From: Peptostreptococcus russellii
Lineage (GTDB): Bacteria; Bacillota; Clostridia; Peptostreptococcales; Peptostreptococcaceae
NCBI RefSeq assembly: GCF_003012055.1
Contig: NZ_JYGE01000001.1
Span: 124,001-188,000 of the forward strand
Length of the DNA: 64,000 nucleotides
Direction: 5' to 3'
The position numbers were made by a program, and so were the translations under genes. Of the stretch, positions 13,418 through 31,888 are shown one piece after another; the stretch's first letter is position 1, and every line of letters begins with the position of its first letter. The notes beneath the pieces are model-generated. The model worked only from the letters and a program-made list of their open reading frames with translations. It was not told where the DNA came from and did no database searches.

Positions 13418-14161
13418 ATGAGGATTTTAATGAAATTTAGTATGGATGAGACTTTTATGCCTACTGATTATCACAAAATGATAATTAGTTTTATAAAAAA
13501 GTCAATTAGTGAGTATTCTGAAGGAAGCTTTTTTGATGAGTTTTACAATGAAGATATTTCACAAAATACAAGAAAGGATTTTTCATGGAGTATGAAATTG
13601 ATGAATCCTGAGTTTCATAGAAATAGAATAGAGGTTTTAGATAGGAAGTTTGATCTTACATTTGCAGCAGCAGATAAAATGAATATCTTGATCTTATTTA
13701 ATTCTTTTTTAAATCAGAAAGGAAAAAAATTCAAAATTTCTAAAGAAAATTCAATAAAATTGGAAAAAATAAGCATTTTAAAGGAAAAAAATGTGGAAGG
13801 AAATGTTGCTCAGTTTGCACTTTATTCGCCACTAGTTATAAGAGAGCATAATAAAGAGAGTAATGTAGACAGATATGTAACTGTTGAGGATGAAGATTTT
13901 ATTGAAGCATTTAAGTTAAATCTAGAAAGAGCATATCCAGCTTTAAAGAATGAAATTCAAGAAATGAAAATAGATACTTCTAGAATGAAAAAGCAGGTAA
14001 TTCCATTGTTTGGTCATATGATAGAAGTTTCTTTAGGTAATTTTCTTGCTATGGCAGATAGAAACTTACTAAATTCTATGCTAATCAATTCAATTGGAAG
14101 TAGAAAAAGTGCAGGGTTTGGTTTACTAAACCTTATAGATTCGTGGGAGATGAGACTATGA
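13418..14161 (+). CDS. cas6: CRISPR-associated endoribonuclease Cas6
   Basis: A 247-residue RAMP-fold ribonuclease that cuts the pre-crRNA within each repeat. The C-terminal glycine-rich RNA-binding loop typical of Cas6 is present (GSRKSAGFGLL, about residues 225-236). In type I-B systems Cas6 cleaves eight bases from the 3' end of the repeat, which would leave the handle ATGTAAAG on each crRNA here. The catalytic histidine cannot be assigned with certainty. ATG 13418 follows AAGGAGG. It is the first gene of the cas operon, and its last four bases (ATGA) overlap the start of cas8b, indicating translational coupling. Confidence 0.9.
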   Translation: MRILMKFSMDETFMPTDYHKMIISFIKKSISEYSEGSFFDEFYNEDISQNTRKDFSWSMKLMNPEFHRNRIEVLDRKFDLTFAAADKMNILILFNSFLNQKGKKFKISKENSIKLEKISILKEKNVEGNVAQFALYSPLVIREHNKESNVDRYVTVEDEDFIEAFKLNLERAYPALKNEIQEMKIDTSRMKKQVIPLFGHMIEVSLGNFLAMADRNLLNSMLINSIGSRKSAGFGLLNLIDSWEMRL

Positions 14162-15666
14162 TAAGAAGAGATTTAGAAGGAAAATTTGATACAGTTTTAG
14201 AGTTTTCCGACTGGAGGTATTCTGCATCAGCAGTAGGTCTTATGAGATATTTTGAAGAAGAGGGAATAGACTATTCTACTAGCTATGAAGAAGAATACAC
14301 TCTTGATGGAGAAAATAAAAGTAAAGTAAGAAATGATGTTTTATGTTATAACACAAAAGATATTTTATTAGATGATGAAGAAAATAGGGAAAGATATCTA
14401 GATTTTGTTGAAAAGTATTTTAAGTCTAAGATGCATCATTTAGGACTAAAGGCTTTGATTAAAAATGACACTTTAAGTGATGAGGATGTAAAGTCTATAA
14501 AGGATTTAATGAAGGCCAATGTCATAATGAAGAAAGTATTTAAAGGAATTGATATAGATATTAACTCTGATAAATCTTTTAAAAATAATGTATTAGATTT
14601 GATGGAAAAAAATAGATATAGCTTGATAGAAGAAACTTATAAAAATGGTATGGCGACATATAGAAATTTTTGCAATCAGAACTCTTTAGGAACAGCTGAG
14701 GGGAATGTTTGCAGACTAGTTGGCTACTATGTTGACTTACCTAAAAAGAAAAAATCAATGGCTTTTAATTGGGATTATGATACATATGTTTATGAAGACT
14801 GTCCAGAGTTTGACTATATTCCTTTTGGGTTCAGTAAAACTAGAGATGCATTTTTCATAAATAATAATTTTAGTTCAAAGGAATTATTAAAGGCCAATAA
14901 TAACTTAAACAATTCTTTGTATCAAGAAAACGATATAAAAGACGATAATAAAAATGCTAGAAGTGCTTTGTTTTTATCTTCGTCAAAAGCCGCTGAATTT
15001 ATAAATTATCAAGTAGAAATTGTAGTTAAAAATAGGGATAAAGACTATTTTGAAACAGTATTTGTAAGAGATTTAGCAATAGATGTATTTAAAAAGATAT
15101 CTGACTCTGAAGATGAACTTATTGTAAAGGCACTTAGTAAAGCTTGTAAATACGGAAGGGATTCTTATCTAAATATAACGGATATTGTGGTCAATTCTAT
15201 ACTGAATATGGTAAGGCTAGACCAATTGATTGATAGACTTTTAAAGGATAAAAATGATCATAAGTTTTTAATTAGTCAATTGATTAGAATAAATACATAT
15301 CTATATGAAAAAATAGATGGTGCAAGTGCTTTAGAAGAATTAAAGAAAAATATTAGTTTAGAAAAAGGAGTGTATAAGAATATGAATAAAGGTAATTACT
15401 TTGCTAAAAAAGCAGCTGATGAAGTAATAAGTAAAATTGAAAAAAATAAGGTTATAGGCTATAGAAATAAGTTAATATCTTGCCTTACATTCAAGGACTA
15501 CGATCGTTTCTGTACAGTTTTGTTACAGCTATCAGCCTATAGTACTGTAAGTTTTGGATTTGCATATGATCTATTTGAAAACTTTGAAGAAAATAAAAAC
15601 CTAGCATATACATTTGTAAATGCACTAAAAAAGAATGAAGTAGCTAAGGAAGTAAATGAAAAATAA
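14158..15666 (+). CDS. cas8b: Type I-B Cascade large subunit Cas8b (Cst1-like)
   Basis: A 502-residue protein in the position of the Cascade large subunit, which recognises the PAM and recruits Cas3. Large subunits are poorly conserved, so the call rests mainly on context (between cas6 and a Cst2-type cas7), on the size, and on the N-terminal segment FSDWRYSASAVGLMRYFEE, which resembles Cst1/Cas8b1 proteins. The ATG at 14158 overlaps the cas6 stop codon (ATGA) and has GGGAGATGAG before it; a GTG five codons upstream is less likely. No nuclease motif is visible. The small subunit of I-B complexes is often made from an internal start in cas8b, which I cannot confirm here. Confidence 0.85.
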   Translation: MIRRDLEGKFDTVLEFSDWRYSASAVGLMRYFEEEGIDYSTSYEEEYTLDGENKSKVRNDVLCYNTKDILLDDEENRERYLDFVEKYFKSKMHHLGLKALIKNDTLSDEDVKSIKDLMKANVIMKKVFKGIDIDINSDKSFKNNVLDLMEKNRYSLIEETYKNGMATYRNFCNQNSLGTAEGNVCRLVGYYVDLPKKKKSMAFNWDYDTYVYEDCPEFDYIPFGFSKTRDAFFINNNFSSKELLKANNNLNNSLYQENDIKDDNKNARSALFLSSSKAAEFINYQVEIVVKNRDKDYFETVFVRDLAIDVFKKISDSEDELIVKALSKACKYGRDSYLNITDIVVNSILNMVRLDQLIDRLLKDKNDHKFLISQLIRINTYLYEKIDGASALEELKKNISLEKGVYKNMNKGNYFAKKAADEVISKIEKNKVIGYRNKLISCLTFKDYDRFCTVLLQLSAYSTVSFGFAYDLFENFEENKNLAYTFVNALKKNEVAKEVNEK

Positions 15667-15843
15667 TAAATATGTAAACTGTTGTAAAAAATAGCTAAGT
15701 TATAAGAATAAATCATTAAAATAAAGCTTTTATCACGCTTTAAATAATATAAGCTTAAAGATAAATTGAAAAACCCAGAGTAAATTTACTTATAACAAAG
15801 GGTGATAAAGGCTATTAATATAATAAAATCAGGAGGAAAAATC

Positions 15844-16722
15844 ATGAAAAATAAAGCTTTAACTATGACAATTGTAGCAAATATGACATCAAACTACGGA
15901 GAAGGTCTTGGAAATATATCTTCTGTTCAGAAGGTATTTAGAAACGGAAAAGTATATGCAACTAGAAGTAGAGAAAGTTTGAAAAATGCAATAATGGTTC
16001 AAAGTGGAATGTATGAGGATCTGGAAGTAGTAGTAGATGGAGCAACTCAAAAGAAAGTTGACGAAGAAAAAAATGCAAGTAACTGTAGAGCTCTAGAAGG
16101 TGGATATATGAGTACATCTCCTACAACAAAGATTAGAAAGAGTTCTTTTTATCTAACAGATGCAGTGGCTTGTGATGAGTTTGTAAATGAAACAAGATTC
16201 CATAACAATTTATACTTAGCATCTAGCTATGCAAAGGCAAATAATATAAATCTTCAAGAAGATGCCAAAAAATCTGGTTTGATGCCATATCAGTATGAAT
16301 ATGATAAATCAATGAAGCAGTATAGTATTACATTTGATTTGGATAAAGTGGGAGTAGATGCAAACTATGATGTAGAAGCTAGTAAAGAAGAAAAAATATT
16401 AAGAGTAAAAACTATATTAGATGCTATTGAAAATTTAGCATTAGCAGTGAAAGGAAATTTAGATAATGCAGAGCCACTATTAGTATTTGGTGGAATTGGT
16501 GACTATAAGACTCATTACTTTGAAAATGTAGTTAGGGTTGATAGAAATAAACTTGATATAACAGAAGATTTAAAGAGAAGATTGGATAATGGATATAGAG
16601 TGGGTCTTTTAAGAGGTGGAAACTTTGATAATGAAATGGATATTATTGAAGAATTAAAGCCTATTAGTATGGCAGAGTTCTTCAGTAAACTTGAAGAGGA
16701 TGTGAAGGAATACTATGAATAA
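15844..16722 (+). CDS. cas7: Type I-B Cascade backbone protein Cas7 (Cst2/DevR family)
   Basis: A 292-residue RAMP protein that polymerises along the crRNA spacer to form the Cascade backbone. The N-terminus LTMTIVANMTSNYGEG-LGNISSVQK and the later EGGYMSTSPTTKIRKS stretch match the Cas7/Cst2/DevR family. ATG 15844 is preceded by AGGAGG; codons further upstream lie before that site. A 177-base gap separates it from cas8b, which might hold an internal promoter, although none stands out. Its stop overlaps the start of cas5 by eight bases, so the two are translated together, as expected for subunits of one complex. Confidence 0.92.
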   Translation: MKNKALTMTIVANMTSNYGEGLGNISSVQKVFRNGKVYATRSRESLKNAIMVQSGMYEDLEVVVDGATQKKVDEEKNASNCRALEGGYMSTSPTTKIRKSSFYLTDAVACDEFVNETRFHNNLYLASSYAKANNINLQEDAKKSGLMPYQYEYDKSMKQYSITFDLDKVGVDANYDVEASKEEKILRVKTILDAIENLALAVKGNLDNAEPLLVFGGIGDYKTHYFENVVRVDRNKLDITEDLKRRLDNGYRVGLLRGGNFDNEMDIIEELKPISMAEFFSKLEEDVKEYYE

Positions 16723-17857
16723 AAAAATCTTAAGGATAAAGTTACACCAAAATAAAGCTCATTATAGAAAAGAAGAAACTATAAATAATAAGATGACATA
16801 TCCCCTACCACCATATTCAACAGTAATAGGTGCAATACATGCAGCCTGTGGATATGAAGAGTATAGACCTATGGATATAAGCATACAGGGGAGATATGAA
16901 TCCATGGATCAAGAAATTTATAAAGATCTTGGATTTTTAAATAGTGTGATGGATGATAGAGGAGTGCTAGTAAAGCTTAAGAGCCCTAATAAATTAAATG
17001 ACGGCTATAAAGAAATAGCAAAGACTCTAAAATCTAAGGGAAATAGCTTTAAGAAGAAGATAACAATTGATATATTAGATGAAGAAGAACTAGATGAATA
17101 TATCAGGATATCAGATCTTAGAGAAGTTTTTCAGGAAGAAAATGCTCTTCTTAAGAAAGAGGATAAGGAAATAAAGGAAAAAGTTAAAGCTCTAAAGGCA
17201 AAGCAAAAAGAAGAGGACAAGTCTTCTCATATATATGAAATGATAGATCAGGAGATAAAGGAATTAAATAATTCTATAAAAGCCAAGAAAAAAGAGCTAA
17301 AAGAAAAAAAGGATAAAGAGTACACAGAACCAATGTCTTTTTATGCAAATTTAACTACTTCTATCAAAAGATATGAAATTTTGTATGGAGTAGATTTAGT
17401 ACTACATATTAGAAGTGATGAAAAAACTATGGAAGAAATAATGGACAATGTATTGAATATTACTTCTATAGGAAGAAGCGAGGACTTTGTAGATAGTGTG
17501 GAAGCCAAGTTTGTTGAGATATCAGAAGATGAGGACTTTGTAGAGGAACCTTCAGAGTTACTTAGAAATTACAGTGGATATGTAGATTATGATTCTTTGA
17601 ATGATGATATATTAGATGAAGAAAGCATATACTATCCAGAATCAATAAATACAGCAGCTTCTATAGCTACTAGAGGAACTTGTTACTATCTCAATAAAGA
17701 TTATGAAATAATAAAAAATAAAAGAATTTTCAATAAGAAAAAGGTAGTATATTTATCAGGCTATAAAATAAATATAGATAGCAGCGAATACAATAGCGCC
17801 TACCCTGAAAGAGGAATATACATAGATGAAGACGGCTATGTAATAAGTTTAATGTAG
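16715..17857 (+). CDS. cas5: Type I-B Cas5 with a coiled-coil insertion
   Basis: Cas5 binds the 5' handle of the crRNA and caps the Cascade backbone. The N-terminal RAMP strand and the signature YPLPPYSTVIGAIHAACGYEEY (residues 29-50; about 15 residues of glycine/proline-rich core) identify the Cas5t/Cst group. At 380 residues it is far longer than the usual 220-260. The excess is a highly charged segment at roughly residues 110-205, rich in E and K with heptad-like spacing, which predicts a long antiparallel coiled coil inserted into the fold. The normal C-terminal part resumes at EPMSFYANLTTSIKRYEILYG in two blocks. It overlaps cas7 by eight bases. Confidence 0.9.
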   Translation: MNKKILRIKLHQNKAHYRKEETINNKMTYPLPPYSTVIGAIHAACGYEEYRPMDISIQGRYESMDQEIYKDLGFLNSVMDDRGVLVKLKSPNKLNDGYKEIAKTLKSKGNSFKKKITIDILDEEELDEYIRISDLREVFQEENALLKKEDKEIKEKVKALKAKQKEEDKSSHIYEMIDQEIKELNNSIKAKKKELKEKKDKEYTEPMSFYANLTTSIKRYEILYGVDLVLHIRSDEKTMEEIMDNVLNITSIGRSEDFVDSVEAKFVEISEDEDFVEEPSELLRNYSGYVDYDSLNDDILDEESIYYPESINTAASIATRGTCYYLNKDYEIIKNKRIFNKKKVVYLSGYKINIDSSEYNSAYPERGIYIDEDGYVISLM

Positions 17858-17905: not shown

Positions 17906-18086
17906 AAACTTATATGAAATTGAGCAAAATCTAATATACTAATAAAAGTAAGTAAATAAATGAGAAGTAAAAGTAAGTAAAATAATAAATAAAAAAAATA
18001 TAAAGCTTGAGTAAGAAATAAAAAGATAACTTTTATTTTAAGGTTGAATGTATAAATAAACAATAAAAACTAAAATGGAGGAGTAT

Positions 18087-20480
18087 ATGAAGAAAATAGA
18101 TTACTTATATGTTGGAGATTATCTAGCTAAGCCTGATGAAACAATCAAAGAGCATACTGAAGAATTATTAAAAAGAAAGTCAGAGCTAATATCAAATGGA
18201 TATTTAACTGATAAAAAAGAAATTGAAATGTTGGAAAAAGCGATAAAATTGCATGATATAGGTAAGTTTAATAGTCATTTCCAAAATAGGTTAATAAAAG
18301 GTGGAAATTTTAATCTTCAAATAGAAGTGCCTCATAATATACTATCCTATTATATATCAGATACAGATAAGAGTGAATTTATTGTGGACAAGGCAGTTAT
18401 TGACCATCATAGCTATGACGATAACTTTAAAGTAGGATATGACGAACCTTTAGAACTAGTTAAAAGAGATATTCTTGAATTATACAATATCGATGAATTA
18501 AATTTATCTGCTGATGAAAAAAAAGAATTTATATCAAAACTAAAAAAAGAAATTAAAAAAAAGAGAAATTATTTAAATAAGATAAAATCTAAGACAAATG
18601 ATCTTATAGATAATGGAGATTTAACTCCAGTTAAAATACTGGGATTACTAAAAAAGTGTGATTACTCTGCAAGTGCCCATATGCCAATAGAGTATCCAGC
18701 AGATTTTCTAGAAAATAAATTAGATGAAATGATGAATAGATGGAAATGCGAAAATAATTCTTCTTGGAATGAACTACAAAAATTCTGCATTGAAAAAAGA
18801 GAAGAAAATATCATAGCAATAGCATCTACTGGAATGGGAAAAACAGAAGGAGCACTATTATGGATAGGTGATAATAAAGGATTTTTTATATTACCACTTA
18901 AAACAGCTATAAATTCAATCTACAAAAGAGTTGTAGATTCGGTAGTTTCTGGTGAAGATATCAATAAAAGAGTTGCACTTCTTCATGGTGATAGTATGAA
19001 TATATATCAAGGTACAGATAAAAAAAATGATATAACTGATATTATTTCATATTATAATGAAAGCAAAAGATTTTCAATGCCTTTAAACATATCTACTCCG
19101 GACCAGCTATTTGACTTTATATTTAAATCAAAAGGCTATGAACTTAAGTATGCGATGATGTCTTATTCAAAGGTTGTTATAGATGAGATTCAAGCATATA
19201 GTCCAGATTTACTAGCATCTATGATTTTGGGAATACAAAAAATTATAGATATAGGAGGAAAGGTTTCTATATTTACGGCGACTTTTCCACCATTTATTAA
19301 GGATCTTTTAATGAAGACAAAGAAAAATGGGAAAATTGTTGATAAATATAGATTTGAAGAGGCAAAGTTTGTAACTGAAGTTGATAGACATAATGTAAAA
19401 GTAATTGAAGAAGAACTTAATTCCAAAGATATTATAAAACATTACCAAGAAAATAATTCTGACCATAAGAAGTATCTAATAGTATGCAACACTGTGAAAA
19501 ATGCTCAAAAGATATATGAAGACTTGAAAAATGAAGGCTTTGAAAATATAAACATATTGCATAGTAAGTTTATAAAGAAAGATAGATCAGAAAAAGAAGA
19601 CAAAATTATGGATACTGGATCTACATTTTTAGAAAATGGTGAGTTTAATAATAAAGATGAGATATGGATATCAACACAGATTGTAGAAGCAAGTCTAGAT
19701 ATAGACTTTGACTATTTATTTACGGAATTATCAGATTTAAATTCATTCTTCCAAAGACTGGGAAGAGTCAATAGAAAAGGTAAGAAATCAATAGATAAAT
19801 TTAATTCATTTATATACACAGAGATTGATAACAAGCTTTTGATAAATATCTATAAAGAAACAGGTTTTATAGATGAAGGCTTGTATAAACTAAGTAAAGA
19901 AGCCTTGCTTGAATTTAAAGAAGGAGTACTTACAGAAAGAAAGAAACAAGAAATGATAGAAGAGTACTTTACTACAGAAAAAGTAGTCGCCAAAGAAAGT
20001 AGATTTATGGATAAGTACTGGGAAACATATAATTATTATGAAGATCTTAATGAGTTTGAACTGTCAAATAAGATAGTTAATAGGAAGTTTAGAAATATTA
20101 TTTCTTTTGATGTATTTCCAGTAGATATAGAAAAAGGACTAATCAATAAAGAAGAGATAGAAGAAATAATATCTCAGATAGAAGAAAATAATGAAAAAAT
20201 ATATACTTGTGAAAATAAAGAAGAAAGAAAAGGAATTATTTTAAAAGGATATGAACTGAAAGATAAGCTAATGCAGTATACTGTGTCAGTCGGAATATAC
20301 GATATAAATAAAGGCGACTTAGAAAATGCCGAAAAGATAGAAATATCCAAGCATAGATTCATAAGAAAAGCAAACTGTCATTATAATGAGAAGGGCTTTC
20401 AGAGGTTGAATAAAGAGGATTATGATAACTGTGCAAATAGTAAAAAAGAAAAAGAAGAAGAATTTGATAGCTTTATATAA
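18087..20480 (+). CDS. cas3: CRISPR-associated nuclease-helicase Cas3
   Basis: The 797-residue effector that unwinds and degrades DNA after Cascade binding. The N-terminal HD nuclease domain shows KLHDIGKFNSHF (HD at residues 56-57) and a later DHHSYDD. The superfamily 2 helicase follows with Walker A ASTGMGKTEG (about 246-255), Walker B DEIQ (about 364), motif III FTATFPP, and motif VI QRLGRVNRKGK. All catalytic signatures are intact, so interference should be functional. ATG 18087 is preferred because GGAGGAG (18077-18083) is its ribosome binding site; an ATG at 18075 overlaps that site. The gene lies about 230 bases after cas5 and 90 bases before cas4. Confidence 0.96.
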   Translation: MKKIDYLYVGDYLAKPDETIKEHTEELLKRKSELISNGYLTDKKEIEMLEKAIKLHDIGKFNSHFQNRLIKGGNFNLQIEVPHNILSYYISDTDKSEFIVDKAVIDHHSYDDNFKVGYDEPLELVKRDILELYNIDELNLSADEKKEFISKLKKEIKKKRNYLNKIKSKTNDLIDNGDLTPVKILGLLKKCDYSASAHMPIEYPADFLENKLDEMMNRWKCENNSSWNELQKFCIEKREENIIAIASTGMGKTEGALLWIGDNKGFFILPLKTAINSIYKRVVDSVVSGEDINKRVALLHGDSMNIYQGTDKKNDITDIISYYNESKRFSMPLNISTPDQLFDFIFKSKGYELKYAMMSYSKVVIDEIQAYSPDLLASMILGIQKIIDIGGKVSIFTATFPPFIKDLLMKTKKNGKIVDKYRFEEAKFVTEVDRHNVKVIEEELNSKDIIKHYQENNSDHKKYLIVCNTVKNAQKIYEDLKNEGFENINILHSKFIKKDRSEKEDKIMDTGSTFLENGEFNNKDEIWISTQIVEASLDIDFDYLFTELSDLNSFFQRLGRVNRKGKKSIDKFNSFIYTEIDNKLLINIYKETGFIDEGLYKLSKEALLEFKEGVLTERKKQEMIEEYFTTEKVVAKESRFMDKYWETYNYYEDLNEFELSNKIVNRKFRNIISFDVFPVDIEKGLINKEEIEEIISQIEENNEKIYTCENKEERKGIILKGYELKDKLMQYTVSVGIYDINKGDLENAEKIEISKHRFIRKANCHYNEKGFQRLNKEDYDNCANSKKEKEEEFDSFI

Positions 20481-20570: not shown

Positions 20571-21065
20571 ATGAAAAAAGAAATAACAGGAATAATGATG
20601 TATTACTATATAGTATGTAAAAGAAAGCTCTGGTATTTCAATAGTGGATTGAGTATGGAACATACAAATGAAGATGTTTCAATTGGAAAGGCAATCGATG
20701 AAGAGTGTTACTATGATGAGGAAAAACATATAAATATAAGAAATATCATAAACATAGACTATATAAAAGATAAAAATGTAATACATGAAGTGAAAAAAAG
20801 TAAAATTGTTGAAGAAGCATCAATCCAACAAATAAAATATTATTTATGGTTTTTAGAAAAAGAAGGTGTTAAAGATGTAATGGGTATATTGGATTATCCC
20901 CTAATAAGAGAAATAAGGAAAGTGAAGTTGGAAGATGATGATAGAAGTAATATAGAAAAAAACTTAAATGAGATCCAAGAAATAATAGAAATGAAAACAC
21001 CTCCAGAATTATGTAAAAAAAGTATATGTAAAAATTGTGCATATCATGATATTTGCTTTATTTAA
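20571..21065 (+). CDS. cas4: CRISPR-associated exonuclease Cas4
   Basis: A 164-residue RecB-family nuclease with an iron-sulfur cluster, which trims prespacers and selects those with a correct PAM for Cas1-Cas2. The four cluster cysteines are visible: C16 in VCKRKLWYF and C153, C156 and C162 in SICKNCAYHDICFI. Nuclease residues are suggested by GILDYP and IHEVKKSK. The start has AAGGGAAG upstream. It is the last gene before the leader and array, and is separated from its functional partners cas1-cas2 by the whole 9.3-kb array, an unusual arrangement. Confidence 0.94.
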   Translation: MKKEITGIMMYYYIVCKRKLWYFNSGLSMEHTNEDVSIGKAIDEECYYDEEKHINIRNIINIDYIKDKNVIHEVKKSKIVEEASIQQIKYYLWFLEKEGVKDVMGILDYPLIREIRKVKLEDDDRSNIEKNLNEIQEIIEMKTPPELCKKSICKNCAYHDICFI

Positions 21066-21240
21066 GATAGTCGACATCAGATAAGTCAAAAAGACTGTTG
21101 AGTCGACTAAAGAAAGAAGTGTGTAGTATCAAATGCTCTGAACTTTATGATATACTAAAGGTATAAATTAGAGGAGTATCTCCGAGGTCGACAGAAATGG
21201 AACTTGAAAGCCAGTAACAGCAAGGCATTAAATCGTAGCT
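21066..21240 (+). promoter_or_regulatory. CRISPR leader
   Basis: The 175 bases between cas4 and the first repeat form the leader, shown by intact repeats at this end and degenerate ones at the far end. It has a nested hairpin: AGTCGAC (21069-21075) with GTCGACT (21102-21108), enclosing AGTC-AAAAA-GACT (21084-21096), and a third GTCGAC near 21186. TATACT (21151-21156) and TATAAAT (21162-21168) are candidate -10 boxes, without a clear -35. Confidence 0.75.
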
Positions 21241-24200
21241 GTATTAAACTAACCAAAGTGGAATGTAAAGATTTTAGAAAGAAGCTGATAGCGCTAGAAA
21301 TAGATAGTATTAAACTAACCAAAGTGGAATGTAAAGTTTCAATAATGGAGTTTCCACTTGCGTTTTGATTTGGGTATTAAACTAACCAAAGTGGAATGTA
21401 AAGTTCTTCCGCCTTTTAAGCTACCGGCTACTATGTTATGTATTAAACTAACCAAAGTGGAATGTAAAGATCGAAGCCATAAACTCATTTATAAAGGGAT
21501 TAGGTGTATTAAACTAACCAAAGTGGAATGTAAAGTATAGTTACTGCAATGATACAACAATTGCAGTATGGGTATTAAACTAACCAAAGTGGAATGTAAA
21601 GACTACAAGTTGAACTAAACCAGTAAATAACGTTTTTGTATTAAACTAACCAAAGTGGAATGTAAAGTTGCGTCTGTAAATAGTAGGTTCGCTTTAATAA
21701 ATACGTATTAAACTAACCAAAGTGGAATGTAAAGTTTGAATCCTCATTTACTTCTTTCTTTTCATCATTGTGTATTAAACTAACCAAAGTGGAATGTAAA
21801 GTGCTTTTGCATCTGAGAGATCACTATTTTTGTCAGGGTATTAAACTAACCAAAGTGGAATGTAAAGAAAGAAAGAAGATTTTAATAATTTCAAAAATGC
21901 ACTTGTATTAAACTAACCAAAGTGGAATGTAAAGACCTTCTAAGCTCTGCATAAGCTTCATCAAGTGGGAGTATTAAACTAACCAAAGTGGAATGTAAAG
22001 TTAGACGACTCAGTAACATATACTATGACTCTAGAGTATTAAACTAACCAAAGTGGAATGTAAAGAATGTTGTAGACATTATAGTTGAGGATAAGTGGGT
22101 GTATTAAACTAACCAAAGTGGAATGTAAAGCTATTTTAAAAGAGGTTCTTCCACATATCTTATTGCTGTATTAAACTAACCAAAGTGGAATGTAAAGCTA
22201 GTTCAGTTAGTTCTCTCTTTATTATAGCCTTTTGTATTAAACTAACCAAAGTGGAATGTAAAGTATGCTGTGGTAAAAGTCACTTTAAAAGACTTAAGGG
22301 TATTAAACTAACCAAAGTGGAATGTAAAGATTGACGCCTCACCAACTAAGGCGATGTATATCGGGTATTAAACTAACCAAAGTGGAATGTAAAGAATCTG
22401 AAATCACTAACATGTCATTAAGATTGGCTGGTATTAAACTAACCAAAGTGGAATGTAAAGATGATTGCCGGAATAGGGGCTACAGTTAAAGTTGCAGTAT
22501 TAAACTAACCAAAGTGGAATGTAAAGTAAGAACACGTTATTCTTACGTATTTACACGTTATTGTATTAAACTAACCAAAGTGGAATGTAAAGTTTTGTGT
22601 AAACTCGTAAAAATAAGCACCCTTATTAGTATTAAACTAACCAAAGTGGAATGTAAAGATTGCTATAACTATTCCAGTCAATGTGATTATGAATGTATTA
22701 AACTAACCAAAGTGGAATGTAAAGCTAAATTCCCAAATCTTTTCCCCCTCTGGAGATATCTGTATTAAACTAACCAAAGTGGAATGTAAAGAGTTCTTTC
22801 TTTATTTCAGTTATTGCTTGTTCACTAGTATTAAACTAACCAAAGTGGAATGTAAAGAAAGTGCTAGAGTCAATCACTACCGAGGCGGTGATTAGTATTA
22901 AACTAACCAAAGTGGAATGTAAAGGTCACCCATTTTTTAAAACGCTTAGCACTCTCTAGCGTATTAAACTAACCAAAGTGGAATGTAAAGACTATAGATA
23001 CATTAAGGGTTTACTTGGCTAGTGGAGTATTAAACTAACCAAAGTGGAATGTAAAGAACGTTTCATTTTCTAACAATGCTTTAATACTATTAAGTATTAA
23101 ACTAACCAAAGTGGAATGTAAAGGAGGGTATGGCAGTTGGTGTTGAGAGAAACACAGGAGTATTAAACTAACCAAAGTGGAATGTAAAGTCTTATCTAAA
23201 TCACCTTTTGCAAGTATTTTAAATGGTATTAAACTAACCAAAGTGGAATGTAAAGTTATACGATTTTTAAATAATTCTTCAAGCTTAACATGTATTAAAC
23301 TAACCAAAGTGGAATGTAAAGGCACTGCTAGATTATGAATATGAAGATAAAGATAAAGTATTAAACTAACCAAAGTGGAATGTAAAGACGACAGATTTAA
23401 CTTTATCAGCTAATTGAGATGCTGTATTAAACTAACCAAAGTGGAATGTAAAGGTTAATAAGGCAGGTAATACATTTACAATCCTTATGTATTAAACTAA
23501 CCAAAGTGGAATGTAAAGTGATTTATCAGCATAAAGTAATCATTATTTAGTGCAGGTATTAAACTAACCAAAGTGGAATGTAAAGTTAGCTATGTTAGTC
23601 TTAAAAGTCGCTTTGAACTTAGTATTAAACTAACCAAAGTGGAATGTAAAGTTTGATGTTGACTTTCTCAATAACATAAAAGTTAGAGTATTAAACTAAC
23701 CAAAGTGGAATGTAAAGTCTGAATGCTTTGAACAACTTTATGCAACTAATATAGGTATTAAACTAACCAAAGTGGAATGTAAAGGGAACGATTGTAACAA
23801 GTCCCTCATCTATTGCTCTAGTATTAAACTAACCAAAGTGGAATGTAAAGAACTATAAAGGTTGTGCGATACTTCTACATCTGATTGTATTAAACTAACC
23901 AAAGTGGAATGTAAAGAATATATATTGGGTGTATATATAAATATATTAAGTCGTATTAAACTAACCAAAGTGGAATGTAAAGGTCACGCACACTTGCATA
24001 GTCAATTGCTCCTACAGTATTAAACTAACCAAAGTGGAATGTAAAGGAATATCTTTCAGAGTGGTTTCTAAATGAAGTTAAAGTATTAAACTAACCAAAG
24101 TGGAATGTAAAGACTATTGAAAAGATATTTGCTGATGAAAACTTGATAGTATTAAACTAACCAAAGTGGAATGTAAAGCAATTGTACTGCAAACACGGGA

Positions 24201-27200
24201 TTCTCATTAAGTATTGTATTAAACTAACCAAAGTGGAATGTAAAGACTCAAAAGCCAGTCGGATTATTGAAAAAGTTAAGTATTAAACTAACCAAAGTGG
24301 AATGTAAAGACATTTGTAGAGTGGACTATTCAGCACTTGTATTTAAGTATTAAACTAACCAAAGTGGAATGTAAAGTTTTTATCTTTTACTTCATCTACT
24401 GTTTTTCTAACTCGTATTAAACTAACCAAAGTGGAATGTAAAGTAATATAATTACGATTAAGCCACTCTTTCTGTGAGTGTATTAAACTAACCAAAGTGG
24501 AATGTAAAGTTTAGTATAACAGTTATCTATTATAATACTTCTTTAGTATTAAACTAACCAAAGTGGAATGTAAAGAATTCTTTCGCGACAACGTCTAACA
24601 CTGTCGTTTTGTGTATTAAACTAACCAAAGTGGAATGTAAAGACTTCTTTTTGTATAATCTCAGCTAACTGTGGAGCGCGTATTAAACTAACCAAAGTGG
24701 AATGTAAAGTTGTAAGTTGATAGATGTTGAAACTGGTGATAGCTTGTATTAAACTAACCAAAGTGGAATGTAAAGAAAAAAAGAATGGAAATGCTAGTTT
24801 TTATCCTTTGTGTATTAAACTAACCAAAGTGGAATGTAAAGGAAATAGAATTAAACAATTTACTGAGATTATTTAGGTATTAAACTAACCAAAGTGGAAT
24901 GTAAAGTCAAATAGCTCTCCTGACATCTGTAAAAGCTGACTTGTATTAAACTAACCAAAGTGGAATGTAAAGCTTACTTTGAGCTTTTTTAAGAGCTTCA
25001 GTAACCCTGTATTAAACTAACCAAAGTGGAATGTAAAGTCTGCTTCTTCAATTATTTCAGATGTATCTTTTTCGTATTAAACTAACCAAAGTGGAATGTA
25101 AAGAAACTACCTTTGAAGATGTATATAACACTATTGGAGGTATTAAACTAACCAAAGTGGAATGTAAAGTACCACTAATGGATATGTAAGGGGAGCAGTA
25201 TTAGAGTATTAAACTAACCAAAGTGGAATGTAAAGTATTCTTTTATTTCATTCTCAATGTCTCCAATTTCAGTATTAAACTAACCAAAGTGGAATGTAAA
25301 GCTCAATCCTTTTTTCAAGCTCTTTGTTTTTTTCTTCGTATTAAACTAACCAAAGTGGAATGTAAAGCTTTGACGGCGTCTAGCACTACTGCAGACTGTT
25401 GAGTATTAAACTAACCAAAGTGGAATGTAAAGGTCATTTGCCCCCATTTTCGTATTTGGCAGGTTTGAGTATTAAACTAACCAAAGTGGAATGTAAAGTT
25501 TGCTTTCTCCTTTTCGATTTTTTTTGTGTTTGTCGTATTAAACTAACCAAAGTGGAATGTAAAGCGAATCCACATATTACCGCTAGAGTCAACAGTCATA
25601 GTATTAAACTAACCAAAGTGGAATGTAAAGCTAACTTAGTAGCTTCCGAAACTCTCTTTTCTTCCGGTATTAAACTAACCAAAGTGGAATGTAAAGACGA
25701 TTGACACATTAAGGGTTTATCTAGCTAGTGGAAGTATTAAACTAACCAAAGTGGAATGTAAAGTAAATTATATGGAAAATCAGATGTATTAGAGGGAACG
25801 TATTAAACTAACCAAAGTGGAATGTAAAGTTAGAAGGTCTAGCAGTCCCTTGATATTTCTTTATAGTATTAAACTAACCAAAGTGGAATGTAAAGTATGT
25901 CTTTCAAGCTAAAAAGGAAAACGTTCTTGATTTAGTATTAAACTAACCAAAGTGGAATGTAAAGTCCGAAAATACTTGTTTCACTCCGTCAAAAAATGCG
26001 GTATTAAACTAACCAAAGTGGAATGTAAAGCCATTTATTTTTAAATCTTTATAGTCTATCACTCCGTGTATTAAACTAACCAAAGTGGAATGTAAAGTAT
26101 ATTACGAACATTTTAAAGCTTTAACATTGCATCGTATTAAACTAACCAAAGTGGAATGTAAAGCAAGAAGCGATTTTAACGTGTGAAAATGGAATGCAGG
26201 TATTAAACTAACCAAAGTGGAATGTAAAGACTGAGGCTTGGTCTAGTAATTTTTGATGATCTTCAGTATTAAACTAACCAAAGTGGAATGTAAAGTACTT
26301 GATACGTATAGACAGTCATCATATCTTGTATGTATTAAACTAACCAAAGTGGAATGTAAAGGCTCATCTTTCTTGGGATATAGAGTTCACATATAGAGTA
26401 TTAAACTAACCAAAGTGGAATGTAAAGAATGACAACTATTCTCAATGATATTTAAGAAACACAGTATTAAACTAACCAAAGTGGAATGTAAAGGAAAAGT
26501 ATAAATGATTAGAGGTGATAAAGATTGTCGTATTAAACTAACCAAAGTGGAATGTAAAGGATAAACACGGACGGCGTAGCATTTTGTGGCGGTAAGTATT
26601 AAACTAACCAAAGTGGAATGTAAAGAGGTTAGTATTTTAGATGTGTAATGTAAATATAGTGCGTATTAAACTAACCAAAGTGGAATGTAAAGTATCCTAC
26701 CCCCTGCACATCTTTTCAATATGATAAAGTATTAAACTAACCAAAGTGGAATGTAAAGAATGATTACTTTATGGGAGTAGGATTTAAGGGCGGGTATTAA
26801 ACTAACCAAAGTGGAATGTAAAGGACACTATCCCTAGAAAGCTTCAGTTGCTTGTTGGAGTATTAAACTAACCAAAGTGGAATGTAAAGACATACATTAT
26901 CTTTGCCAAATTTATTAGAAAGGACGTATTAAACTAACCAAAGTGGAATGTAAAGATATAATATCACAATATATATACTATTGTCAACTAAGTATTAAAC
27001 TAACCAAAGTGGAATGTAAAGTACTTGTAGCACAATCCCTTCGAATTTCAAAAGCTATGTATTAAACTAACCAAAGTGGAATGTAAAGAAGAAAGAAGAA
27101 AAGGACACTATGACTACTACATCAGTATTAAACTAACCAAAGTGGAATGTAAAGTGAAATTAAATGGCACATCTGGGAAGGGCTATGGATGTATTAAACT

Positions 27201-29933
27201 AACCAAAGTGGAATGTAAAGCTAATAATGAATTCTACTTCATTCAATCTTTTTTTAGTATTAAACTAACCAAAGTGGAATGTAAAGATCTATGTTAAACT
27301 TTGCTTTATAGCTAGGCTCATGTATTAAACTAACCAAAGTGGAATGTAAAGATTGCTATATTCTCAGCTATTAATTGATTTAAAAAAGTATTAAACTAAC
27401 CAAAGTGGAATGTAAAGTGTAGTGCAGATGTCATAAAAGAATGTCAAAAGCAGTATTAAACTAACCAAAGTGGAATGTAAAGATACTATTAATCTTGTTA
27501 CTTAAAAAAACAGTTGCGTATTAAACTAACCAAAGTGGAATGTAAAGCAGGATGTCCATTGGGTGAAACCAAACGAACTAAAGGTATTAAACTAACCAAA
27601 GTGGAATGTAAAGCTGTTTTTTCGACTACTTCATACTTTAAATCCATTACGTATTAAACTAACCAAAGTGGAATGTAAAGTGGCTTGTATTGACCGTATC
27701 ATTTTTAGAAGAGTTCGTATTAAACTAACCAAAGTGGAATGTAAAGTAAGTCATCGGTTAGTTCTTCATTCTCGCATTTATAGTATTAAACTAACCAAAG
27801 TGGAATGTAAAGCTTACAAGAGTATGGAAATGCTGTATATTACAAAGCGTATTAAACTAACCAAAGTGGAATGTAAAGATAAGTATGGATTTATTTATAC
27901 TAAAAAAGCTTTAGGTATTAAACTAACCAAAGTGGAATGTAAAGATATAATCACCATGCTGGAGAAATGTTTACGGCAACGTATTAAACTAACCAAAGTG
28001 GAATGTAAAGGTTGCGGACATGCAAAATAACGTAAACAAACTTATGGTATTAAACTAACCAAAGTGGAATGTAAAGGATGGTGGGACTGCTGGGTATATT
28101 GCTAAGGTGTGGTATTAAACTAACCAAAGTGGAATGTAAAGACATTTATACCGTTTAGCTTAACTAGGTGTGAGTGGTATTAAACTAACCAAAGTGGAAT
28201 GTAAAGTATTGTTTCATTTTGCTACCTCCTAAAATATTATTTAGTATTAAACTAACCAAAGTGGAATGTAAAGAGAGTACACTTATAGAAGTATGAGTGG
28301 TGAAAAATCGTATTAAACTAACCAAAGTGGAATGTAAAGATAGATGATAATATTGTATTTTAGACATAAAAATAAGGTATTAAACTAACCAAAGTGGAAT
28401 GTAAAGAGGGATCTCTTATTATGACGTGACTCCGCATGGCGAAGTATTAAACTAACCAAAGTGGAATGTAAAGACTGACGGTCAAATAGGGCAATGGGAT
28501 AAGTTTGATTGTATTAAACTAATCAAAGTGGAATGTAAAGAACTCTATTATATTGCCAAACTCTTCAATCTTTACTGTATTAAACTAACCAAAGTGGAAT
28601 GTAAAGATAGACTTGGATACTCAAAGATAGCAAATGCGATAGCGTATTAAACTAACCAAAGTGGAATGTAAAGTTTTTTGATGATGCAATAGCAGCACTT
28701 AGATATGGGGTATTAAACTAACCAAAGTGGAATGTAAAGATCAATCATTTCCGGAGTATAAAAATAATCAAAAGAGCATTAAACTAACCAAAGTGGAATG
28801 TAAAGGCTGTTGTTAAAATTATGGATAATTTATTTTTATTACCGTATTAAACTAACCAAAGTGGAATGTAAAGACAGAGCAATAAGGGCTATAAATTGGG
28901 TTATTAAAGGTATTAAACTAACCAAAGTGGAATGTAAAGATTTTTATTAAAAAATAATATATTGTTATTTTACTTAAGTATTAAACTAACCAAAGTGGAA
29001 TGTAAAGAATAGAGTGTGTCGAGAAATTCAATAAATTAAAGGTGTATTAAACTAACCAAAGTGGAATGTAAAGATTTGATAATTATGAGGATATTCATGT
29101 ATCTATAAGGTATTAAACTAACCAAAGTGGAATGTAAAGCATCAAGATGCTACTTATGACTTTATAGATGTAAGTATTAAACTAACCAAAGTGGAATGTA
29201 AAGAGGACTTGGTGCAATAGGTGCTTTTGTAATTGATTTGTATTAAACTAACCAAAGTGGAATGTAAAGGGACAATGCACATTTACTATTATGCAAGAAA
29301 CTGCGTATTAAACTAACCAAAGTGGAATGTAAAGGATGCACTGATTTAAGGAGGGAGCTAATGGAGGATAAGTATTAAACTAACCAAAGTGGAATGTAAA
29401 GAACAATAAGATAGTTAACCCTTATCCAAAATACATTGTATTAAACTAACCAAAGTGGAATGTAAAGATTAATCAAGTTTGCGATAAGATATTATGACGT
29501 TGGGTATTAAACTAACCAAAGTGGAATGTAAAGAATAGAATCTGAGATAAGAATGAGATTAGATGAATAGTATTAAACTAACCAAAGTGGAATGTAAAGT
29601 TGGCTAAAGCTAGGGGAGAGAAAAGACTATATTATGTATTAAACTAACCAAAGTGGAATGTAAAGTAGTTAGACATATGGAACGTCTAAAAAGATATGAC
29701 CGTATTAAACTAATCAAAGTGGAATGTAAAGGTCTCTTTTTATTTAACTCAGTCCCTACAAAATTTTGTATTAAACTAACCAAAGTGGAATGTAAAGTTT
29801 TTGTCTTATATGATATTTTTATCAAACAACTTAGTATTAAACTAACCAAAGTGGAATGTAAAGTACACAATTAATATCATACGCCATTATCAATTACTTG
29901 TCAGTATTAAACTAACCAAAGTGGAATGTAAAG

Positions 29934-30035
29934 GTTGATTTGAACTGCTTTAACCTACGATAAATTTCTGTATTAAACTAACCAAAGTGGGATATAAAGG
30001 TTTTAAATTATTTCCAAATCAAACATGAATACAAG
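29934..30035 (+). repeat. First copy of a duplicated two-spacer block in the array
   Basis: This block is spacer GTTGATTTGAACTG... (29934-29969), the degenerate repeat ending GGGATATAAAG, and spacer GTTTTAAATTATTTCC... (30000-30035). It recurs base for base at 30400-30501. Confidence 0.95.
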
Positions 30036-30399
30036 GTATTAAACTAACCAAAGTGGAATGTAAAGTCTACTTCTCTTTTAAACAACAAGCCGACTCCAAT
30101 AGTATTAAACTAACCAAAGTGGAATGTAAAGACCCACCAACTGATACATTAAACATTACACTAATTCCAGTATTAAACTAACCAAAGTGGAATGTAAAGT
30201 TAATCTTTACGTTCTATTATCTATAGATGCAATTAAGTATTAAACTAACCAAAGTGGAATGTAAAGGATTTGAAAACACATTAGGACAACCTAATAAAAT
30301 TGGTATTAAACTAACCAAAGTGGAATGTAAAGAATAGACTTGTACCAATTATCTTTACAAAACTAAGTAGTATTAAACTAACCAAAGTGGAATGTAAAG

Positions 30400-30501
30400 G
30401 TTGATTTGAACTGCTTTAACCTACGATAAATTTCTGTATTAAACTAACCAAAGTGGGATATAAAGGTTTTAAATTATTTCCAAATCAAACATGAATACAA
30501 G
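30400..30501 (+). repeat. Second copy of the duplicated two-spacer block, at the array end
   Basis: Identical to 29934-30035, including the variant repeat, and followed by the terminal degenerate repeat. Five unique spacers separate the two copies. Confidence 0.95.
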
Positions 30502-30599
30502 GTATTAAACTAACCAAAATGGAATGTAAAGTGTTTCTATGATTTTTAATTCAGTATTAATTATTAAGCTAAATAATAATCCACAGAAGGAGGAGTCTT

Positions 30600-31592
30600 A
30601 TGAAGAAAAACATCTATATATACTCAGAATCTCAACTTAGGAGAAAAGACAACACAATTCAAATAAATTTGGATGGTGGAGGAAAAAAAGATATACCGAT
30701 AGAGAGAGTATCTGATATTTATGTTATGACAGAGATGAGTTTTAATACTAGTATTATTAATTTGCTATCAAAATATGGAATTACCATGCATTTTTTTAAT
30801 TACTATAGTTATTATACGGGAAGTTTTTATCCTAGGGAAACAAATGTATCAGGTAAGCTGCTAGTTCATCAAGTGGGGCATTTTATAGATGAAGAGTTGC
30901 GTTTAGAGATTGCCAAAGAGTTTGTACTAGGTGCTACAGATGGAATTTTAAGAAATTTAAAATACTATAATAATAGGGGAAAGGATCTTTCAAAATATAT
31001 TAAGGACATTGATTTTCTTAGGAAAAAAATAAAATTACAGAATAATGTATCTGAATTGATGGGAATTGAGGGAAATATTCATAAGATTTATTATGATTCT
31101 TGGAATATTATAGTAAATCAAGAAATTGATTTTGAAAAAAGAGTAAAGAGACCTCCAGATAATATGATTAATACTATGATTTCATTTGTGAATAGTCTAA
31201 TATATACAACAGTTTTATCTCAAATATATATTACTCAACTTGATCCAACGATTAGCTACTTACATGTTCCAGGTGAAAGGCGTTTTTCTCTTGCTTTGGA
31301 CATAGCAGAGGTATTTAAACCTTTAGTTGGAGATAGGCTTATATTTTCATTGCTAAATAGAAATCAAATAACTGAAGATTGTTTTAGTAAAGACTTAAAT
31401 TATCTCCAGATGACAAAGAAAGCTTCTCAGATAATTCTTAGGGAATTTGACGAGTCTCTCAAAAGGACTATAAAGCATAAGGAGTTAGGAAAAAGTGTAA
31501 GTTATAAATATTTAATGAGATTAGAGGCTTATAAGTTAATCAAACATTTATTGGGTGAAAAGGAGTATCAGAGTTTTAAGCTTTGGTGGTAA
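30600..31592 (+). CDS. cas1: CRISPR integrase Cas1
   Basis: A 330-residue integrase that, with Cas2, inserts new spacers at the leader end of the array. The metal-binding residues are recognisable as E in MGIEGNI (about 156), H in SYLHVPGERRF (about 222) and D in LALDIAEVFKP (about 234). Length and motifs fit type I-B Cas1. ATG 30600 follows AAGGAGGAG. The gene begins only 69 bases after the last repeat, and I see neither a terminator nor a good promoter in that gap. It is followed closely by cas2. Confidence 0.96.
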   Translation: MKKNIYIYSESQLRRKDNTIQINLDGGGKKDIPIERVSDIYVMTEMSFNTSIINLLSKYGITMHFFNYYSYYTGSFYPRETNVSGKLLVHQVGHFIDEELRLEIAKEFVLGATDGILRNLKYYNNRGKDLSKYIKDIDFLRKKIKLQNNVSELMGIEGNIHKIYYDSWNIIVNQEIDFEKRVKRPPDNMINTMISFVNSLIYTTVLSQIYITQLDPTISYLHVPGERRFSLALDIAEVFKPLVGDRLIFSLLNRNQITEDCFSKDLNYLQMTKKASQIILREFDESLKRTIKHKELGKSVSYKYLMRLEAYKLIKHLLGEKEYQSFKLWW

Positions 31593-31609
31593 TTTGTGTG
31601 AGGTGGATT

Positions 31610-31888
31610 ATGTATATTATTTTGGTATATGATATAGCTTTGGATGAGAATGGAGCAAAAGTTTGGAGAGATACATTTAAAATTTGCAAAAGATATTTAA
31701 CTCATGTGCAAAACTCTGTATTTGAAGGAGAAGTATCAAAGTCTCAGTTATTTGAACTGAAAAAAGCTTTCAAAAAGGTGATAAGAAAAGATAAAGATTC
31801 CTTGATTATATTTTCTAGTAGGGATCAGAGGTGGCTGGATAAGGATATTTTTGGTATATATAATGAGGATATGGATAATTTTATATAG
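31610..31888 (+). CDS. cas2: CRISPR integration factor Cas2
   Basis: A 92-residue ferredoxin-fold protein that bridges two Cas1 dimers during spacer integration. MYIILVYDIAL carries the conserved aspartate of Cas2 proteins (YDI), and SSRDQRWLDKDIFGI fits the C-terminal part of the I-B group. ATG 31610 is preceded by GAGGTGG; an in-frame GTG at 31583 inside the end of cas1 has no good site. It lies 17 bases after cas1 and closes the CRISPR-Cas locus. Confidence 0.95.
   Translation: MYIILVYDIALDENGAKVWRDTFKICKRYLTHVQNSVFEGEVSKSQLFELKKAFKKVIRKDKDSLIIFSSRDQRWLDKDIFGIYNEDMDNFI

What the first reader, a model, noticed from the sequence alone, without database searches (positions are those of the whole stretch)
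22991..25733. Two spacers from the same codons of two diverged phage genes, differing only at synonymous sites
Spacer 22991-23026 and spacer 25697-25733 align without gaps over 36 bases with six differences. In one shared frame both encode TIDTLRVYLASG. The changes are ACT/ACG, ATA/ATT, GAT/GAC, TAC/TAT and TTG/CTA, all synonymous. This pattern implies two acquisitions, at the same position and on the same strand, from homologous genes under purifying selection, rather than duplication in the array. The older spacer would mismatch the newer phage at six sites, which fits primed adaptation or a strong preference for one PAM site.
Basis: seen in the sequence. Interest (0 to 1): 0.75.

Follow-up and report, generated by a model that had tools for sequence, protein, structure and literature searches.

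The report
Twin CRISPR spacers, silent differences only
A bacterium's 140-entry CRISPR memory holds two entries that spell the same 12 amino acids and differ only by silent DNA changes, so the same spot in two related (probably viral) genes was recorded on two occasions; it is a neat but fairly ordinary trace of repeated encounters with related invaders.

Summary
Confirmed: spacer 27 (22991-23026) and spacer 68 (25697-25733) of a 140-spacer type I-B array align from their first base with 6 differences in 36. All six are silent in the frame starting at spacer base 1, the only one of six frames without stops in both (TIDTLRVYLASG). Random placement of six changes gives this with P about 1.4-2.2e-4. 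The pair is far outside the rest of the array (score 21; shuffled maxima 9-12.5). In-array duplication with drift is a poor fit. Best reading: two independent acquisitions at one codon-exact site in homologous coding sequences.

Not shown: the source gene. No protospacer turned up in 50,697 phage records, IMG/VR, GTDB species genomes, or 394 genomes of the order. A weak lead to the N-terminus of RecT-type recombinases is contradicted by the PAM.

Other spacers in the array hit diverged phage homologues with CCN upstream (8 of 11). For this pair a CCN PAM would be an in-frame proline codon, which silent change cannot destroy.

Neither priming nor PAM preference is required: about 2,000-2,900 CCN sites per 40 kb phage make a chance repeat plausible if a few dozen spacers came from one lineage. 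Silent drift under spacers in conserved phage genes was reported in 2009.

The parts
22991..23026 (+). spacer 27 (36 nt), encodes TIDTLRVYLASG from its first base; the newer of the pair (nearer the leader)
   Evidence: array parse; translation
25697..25733 (+). spacer 68 (37 nt), same peptide, six silent differences; the older of the pair
21241..30531 (+). CRISPR array, 141 repeats of 30 nt (GTATTAAACTAACCAAAGTGGAATGTAAAG), 140 spacers; six variant repeats, all at 28511 or later
   Evidence: no other copies of the repeat (up to 3 mismatches) in the genome or eight congeners
21066..21240 (+). presumed leader region between cas4 and the first repeat
   Evidence: position opposite the degenerate repeats; CCN found 5' of homologous sites in spacer orientation agrees with + strand transcription; inference
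13418..14161 (+). cas6b
   Evidence: PADLOC PDLC02103 E 5e-68
14143..15666 (+). cas8 (Cas8b/Csx8-type, subtype I-B)
   Evidence: PDLC00968 E 1e-121, PDLC01310 E 4e-119
15802..16722 (+). cas7b
   Evidence: PDLC00961 E 8e-61
16715..17857 (+). cas5b
   Evidence: PDLC02094 E 1e-124
18075..20480 (+). cas3b
   Evidence: PDLC02081 E 7e-243
20571..21065 (+). cas4b
   Evidence: PDLC02086 E 1e-63
30600..31592 (+). cas1b, downstream of the array
   Evidence: PDLC02065 E 2e-149
31583..31888 (+). cas2b
   Evidence: PDLC02076 E 2e-36

Best explanation
An ordinary type I-B CRISPR array sampled the same PAM-defined site on two separate occasions, from two homologous coding sequences whose protein is conserved at this site while the codons have drifted. 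Shown: the alignment, the silent-only changes, the single open frame, the intact I-B cas set, and CCN upstream of other spacers' homologous sites. Inferred: the source is phage (or another mobile element); both protospacers carry CCN upstream, which here would be an in-frame proline codon, so that silent drift leaves the PAM and hence the acquisition point unchanged; the older spacer 68 became a poor match to the later relative (one mismatch in the seed at position 3; positions 6 and 24 fall on the every-sixth base that type I complexes are known to leave unpaired), so a fresh spacer was useful. Whether the second uptake was naive or primed is not determined.
For: Six differences, all silent in the only frame open in both; P of silent-only 1.4-2.2e-4; pair is an extreme outlier among 140 spacers; identical start base, as expected when the PAM sets the start. 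The cas set is typed as I-B. Eleven other spacers match homologous phage genes (terminase, portal, tail sheath, tail tube, antirepressor-like protein and others) with 6-14 mismatches, and 8 of the 11 have CCN directly 5' in at least one homologue (background CC 3.3%), in line with CCN/YCN PAMs of clostridial I-B systems (PMC8482600; PMC8406132). Four of those (38, 40, 78, 124) read in the same frame as this pair and have the CCN as an in-frame proline codon.
Against: No source gene or protospacer was found anywhere searched, so homologous genes, phage origin and the PAM of this pair remain inference. The P value treats substitutions as random and was computed after the pattern was noticed.
Confidence: 0.82

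Rival explanations
1. Both spacers come from two paralogous copies of one gene within a single phage or mobile element (for example repeated domains), taken up in one or two episodes.
For: Purifying selection on paralogues gives the same silent-only pattern; sequence alone cannot tell the two cases apart.
Against: The spacers lie 41 array positions apart, which suggests well separated uptake; codon-exact identity over 12 residues with six silent changes is more usual for orthologues than for repeats. No direct test was possible.
Confidence: 0.1
2. Spacer update by primed adaptation: the crRNA of spacer 68 partly recognised the later phage, recruited Cas3 and Cas1-2-4, and the very same protospacer was re-taken in matching form as spacer 27.
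For: Six mismatches lie within the range reported to prime (more than 10 in type I-F, PMC5059440). Spacers 35, 36 and 38 all match one phage contig (L126), a close-set group with chance about 1e-3 (chosen after the fact), which suggests bursts of uptake in this array.
Against: Published priming shows no apparent location bias towards the priming site in I-E (PMC5059440), so exact re-uptake is no more expected than by naive sampling. Spacers next to 27 could not be tied to the same source.
Confidence: 0.12
3. Duplication inside the array followed by mutation of one copy.
For: This array does duplicate: spacers 132-133 recur as 139-140 with the same doubly variant repeat between them.
Against: That real duplication is exact and carries neighbours and variant repeat with it; here neighbours 26/28 and 67/69 are unrelated, and random drift would leave all six changes silent only about 2 times in 10,000. 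A spacer is under no selection to keep a reading frame.
Confidence: 0.03
4. A sub-hypothesis on the target: it is the N-terminal motif of a phage RecT/Bet-type single-strand annealing protein.
For: Best match in the phage DNA tested is TADTVKNYLTSG in a RecT protein; relatives include TADTVRNYLTSG; a motif profile built from 18 RecT proteins scores the peptide above all but 1 of 1.04 million unrelated 12-mers.
Against: Shuffled peptides reach the same top score in 21 of 300 trials, so the lead itself is weak, and the profile test is not independent of it. The peptide scores 17 bits against 25.6-32.2 for true members. The residue before the motif is Leu or Ile in all 22 RecT proteins aligned there, whereas a CCN PAM would require Pro.
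Confidence: 0.15

Closest known systems
Silent variation under spacers in a conserved viral lysozyme/lysin gene, Synechococcus hot-spring mats (PMC2612747, 2009)
   Same: Viral reads covering one protospacer differ from the spacer (down to about 70% DNA identity) almost only by silent or conservative changes, with the peptide kept.
   Different: There one spacer was compared with many viral reads; here two spacers in one array record two silent versions of one site, and no viral sequence is in hand.
Type I-B CRISPR-Cas of Clostridioides difficile (PMC8406132)
   Same: Same family of system, 5' PAM with C at position 2 (CCW/YCN), Cas1-Cas2-Cas4 adaptation module.
   Different: One very long array here sits between cas4 and cas1; C. 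difficile 630 has a dozen arrays. The PAM here was inferred from diverged homologues only.
Primed adaptation in type I systems (PMC5059440)
   Same: A partly matching old spacer and a newer spacer against a relative of the same target.
   Different: Priming predicts new spacers elsewhere on the target; nothing here shows that the second uptake was primed.

Membership tests
Type I-B CRISPR-Cas locus | cas8b, cas7, cas5, cas3, cas6, cas4, cas1 and cas2 next to a repeat array | tested here: met
   PADLOC profiles; array parse
Type I-B CRISPR-Cas locus | C-rich 5' PAM (CCN/YCN in clostridia) | tested here: met
   8 of 11 spacers with phage homologues have CCN directly 5' in at least one homologue, background 3.3%; not testable for spacers 27/68 themselves
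Two acquisitions from homologous coding sequences | differences silent in one shared open frame | tested here: met
   P 1.4-2.2e-4
Two acquisitions from homologous coding sequences | protospacers found in homologous genes of two elements | tested here: inconclusive
   no source in phages, IMG/VR, GTDB, family and order genomes
In-array duplication | flanking spacers or repeats copied together, differences blind to reading frame | tested here: not met
   neighbours unrelated; contrast with 132-133/139-140
Primed adaptation (spacer update) | second uptake dependent on the older, mismatched spacer | not testable with these tools
   needs uptake assays; sequence gives only compatibility

The most novel reading that the evidence does not exclude
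The array corrects its own memory: a decayed spacer primes re-uptake of exactly the protospacer it once matched, favoured because the PAM is a proline codon that silent drift cannot remove, so spacers at such in-frame CCN sites in conserved proteins would be repeatedly refreshed.
Probability: 0.1. Interest if true: 0.6.

Novelty: new member of a known kind. Interest (0 to 1): 0.3.

Why it matters
Pairs of this kind are a direct, database-free sign that a lineage met related invaders at well separated times, and that the target is a conserved protein whose source genome has not been sequenced. They also suggest a simple testable idea: where the PAM is a codon fixed by its amino acid (CCN = proline), protospacer sites in conserved proteins stay usable through silent drift. 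One pair cannot show that such sites are favoured.

Tried and rejected
Exact back-translated peptide patterns of different lengths and one relaxed pattern in IMG/VR: no hits. GTDB scan: three hits, in Tsukamurella, a Methylococcaceae MAG and Mycobacterium, about what chance gives for the pattern (the chance figure is my own estimate from the pattern's information content). Pattern with up to 3 mismatches in 71 family and 394 order genomes: only the array itself. BLAST of both spacers and of the whole array against phages and plasmids: nothing convincing. Padded peptide against relatives, 46 viral records, phages, Pfam, PHROGs, NCBIfam and PDB sequences: nothing usable. RecT motif lead followed and held at low weight because of the chance rate and the Leu/Ile before the motif. 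No arrays with this repeat in congeners, so no cross-strain comparison.

Full report
Observation. The window holds one CRISPR array, 21241-30531, with 141 repeats of 30 nt and 140 spacers on the + strand. Around it lies a complete subtype I-B cas set: cas6, cas8b, cas7, cas5, cas3 and cas4 upstream, cas1 and cas2 downstream. The six variant repeats all lie in the right part (28511 onward), which makes the left end the leader end and spacer 27 younger than spacer 68.

Is it more than chance? In an all-against-all comparison of the 140 spacers the pair scores 21; apart from two exact duplicates the next best is 7.5, and three shuffled arrays gave best scores of 9 to 12.5. Only one of six frames is open in both spacers, and all six differences are silent in it. 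Random placement of six substitutions leaves the peptide unchanged with probability 1.4e-4 to 2.2e-4, depending on transition bias. No other pair of spacers shows peptide-level likeness beyond the shuffled level.

Duplication. The array does contain a true duplication: spacers 132-133 recur as 139-140 exactly, together with a repeat that bears two changes (29970 and 30436). The pair 27/68 has none of these marks, and a spacer inside an array has no reason to keep a reading frame. Duplication followed by drift is therefore very unlikely.

Source of the spacers. None of them found the source: BLAST of each spacer against 50,697 phage records, the whole array against phages and plasmids, degenerate peptide patterns in IMG/VR, GTDB (three hits at about the chance level), the genomes of the family and 394 genomes of the order with up to three mismatches, and a padded peptide against relatives and 46 viral records. 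The host genome itself has no match outside the array. This is not unusual: most spacers in general lack a known source (PMC7308287).

What the rest of the array targets. I translated all spacers in all open frames and compared them with prophages of the genus and with viral contigs related to these. Eleven spacers match homologous phage genes at 6-14 mismatches, including terminase large subunit (35, 113), portal (124), one tail sheath gene hit by two spacers (7, 10), a second sheath C-terminus (38), a tail-tube-like protein (36) and an antirepressor-like protein (26) (the gene names are my reading of the sequences, except the terminases, of which L004's and L019's were found with a terminase profile). 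CCN lies directly 5' of the homologous site in at least one homologue for 8 of the 11, against a 3.3% background for CC. This agrees with published clostridial I-B PAMs: CCN in Clostridium (PMC8482600), CCW/YCN in C. difficile (PMC8406132). It also agrees with + strand transcription of the array.

Consequence for the pair. In both spacers the open frame begins at the first spacer base. If the PAM is CCN, it is an in-frame codon for proline, and every proline codon is CCN. Silent drift therefore cannot remove the PAM or shift the uptake point. Spacers 38, 40, 78 and 124 show this arrangement in real phage homologues. For 27/68 it is a prediction: the source protein should read P-TIDTLRVYLASG.

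Identity of the protein. The best hit among about 1.1 million residues of phage ORFs was TADTVKNYLTSG near the N-terminus of a RecT-family annealing protein. RecT relatives in the family and in phages share the motif, and a profile of 18 of them places the peptide above all but 1 of 1.04 million unrelated 12-mers. Against this, shuffled peptides reach the same top score in 21 of 300 trials, true members score well above the peptide, and the residue before the motif is Leu or Ile in all 22 aligned proteins, which does not fit a CCN PAM. I keep RecT as a weak lead, about 15%.

Naive repeat or priming? Related phages carry about 2,000-2,900 CCN sites per 40 kb on both strands. If 40 of the spacers came from one such lineage, the chance of at least one repeated site is about 0.27-0.32 at 2,000-2,500 sites; with 20 spacers it is 0.07-0.09. 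The number of spacers per lineage is not known, so this is only a plausibility estimate, and it makes a coincidence reasonable without excluding preference. Of the six mismatches one (position 3) lies in the seed and two (6 and 24) fall on every-sixth positions that are usually tolerated in type I systems (general knowledge, mainly from I-E). The older spacer could have primed, but published priming shows no apparent location bias towards the priming site (PMC5059440), so exact re-uptake is not a sign of it. Spacers 35, 36 and 38, all matching one phage contig (L126), hint at uptake in bursts; that concerns other spacers.

Known or new. Silent and conservative drift beneath CRISPR spacers in a conserved viral gene was described for hot-spring Synechococcus (PMC2612747). 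The present case adds the mirror image, two spacers in one array holding two silent versions of one site. It is a good example of a known kind. The only reading that would be of wider interest is targeted refreshing of the same site, for which there is no direct evidence.

Noticed in passing
29934-30035 and 30400-30501: Spacers 132-133 are exactly repeated as 139-140, and the repeat between them carries the same two changes in both copies (GTATTAAACTAACCAAAGTGGGATATAAAG): a true segmental duplication at the old end of the array.
   Followed up: partly
20571-31888: The 9.3 kb array lies between cas4 and cas1, splitting the cas genes, and its repeat is absent (up to 3 mismatches) from eight congeneric genomes.
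   Followed up: partly
23519-23754: Spacers 35, 36 and 38 all match homologous sites of one phage contig (L126: terminase, tail tube, tail sheath), and 37 matches a related phage (L026): neighbours in the array from one kind of phage, suggesting uptake in a burst.
   Followed up: partly
21668-21704 and 21868-21904: Spacers 7 and 10 hit the same phage tail sheath gene (L041, L006), on opposite strands.
   Followed up: partly
28674-28709: Spacer 113 encodes FFDDAIAALRYG, the conserved C-terminal stretch of phage terminase large subunits, matching many phages at 6-9 mismatches.
   Followed up: yes
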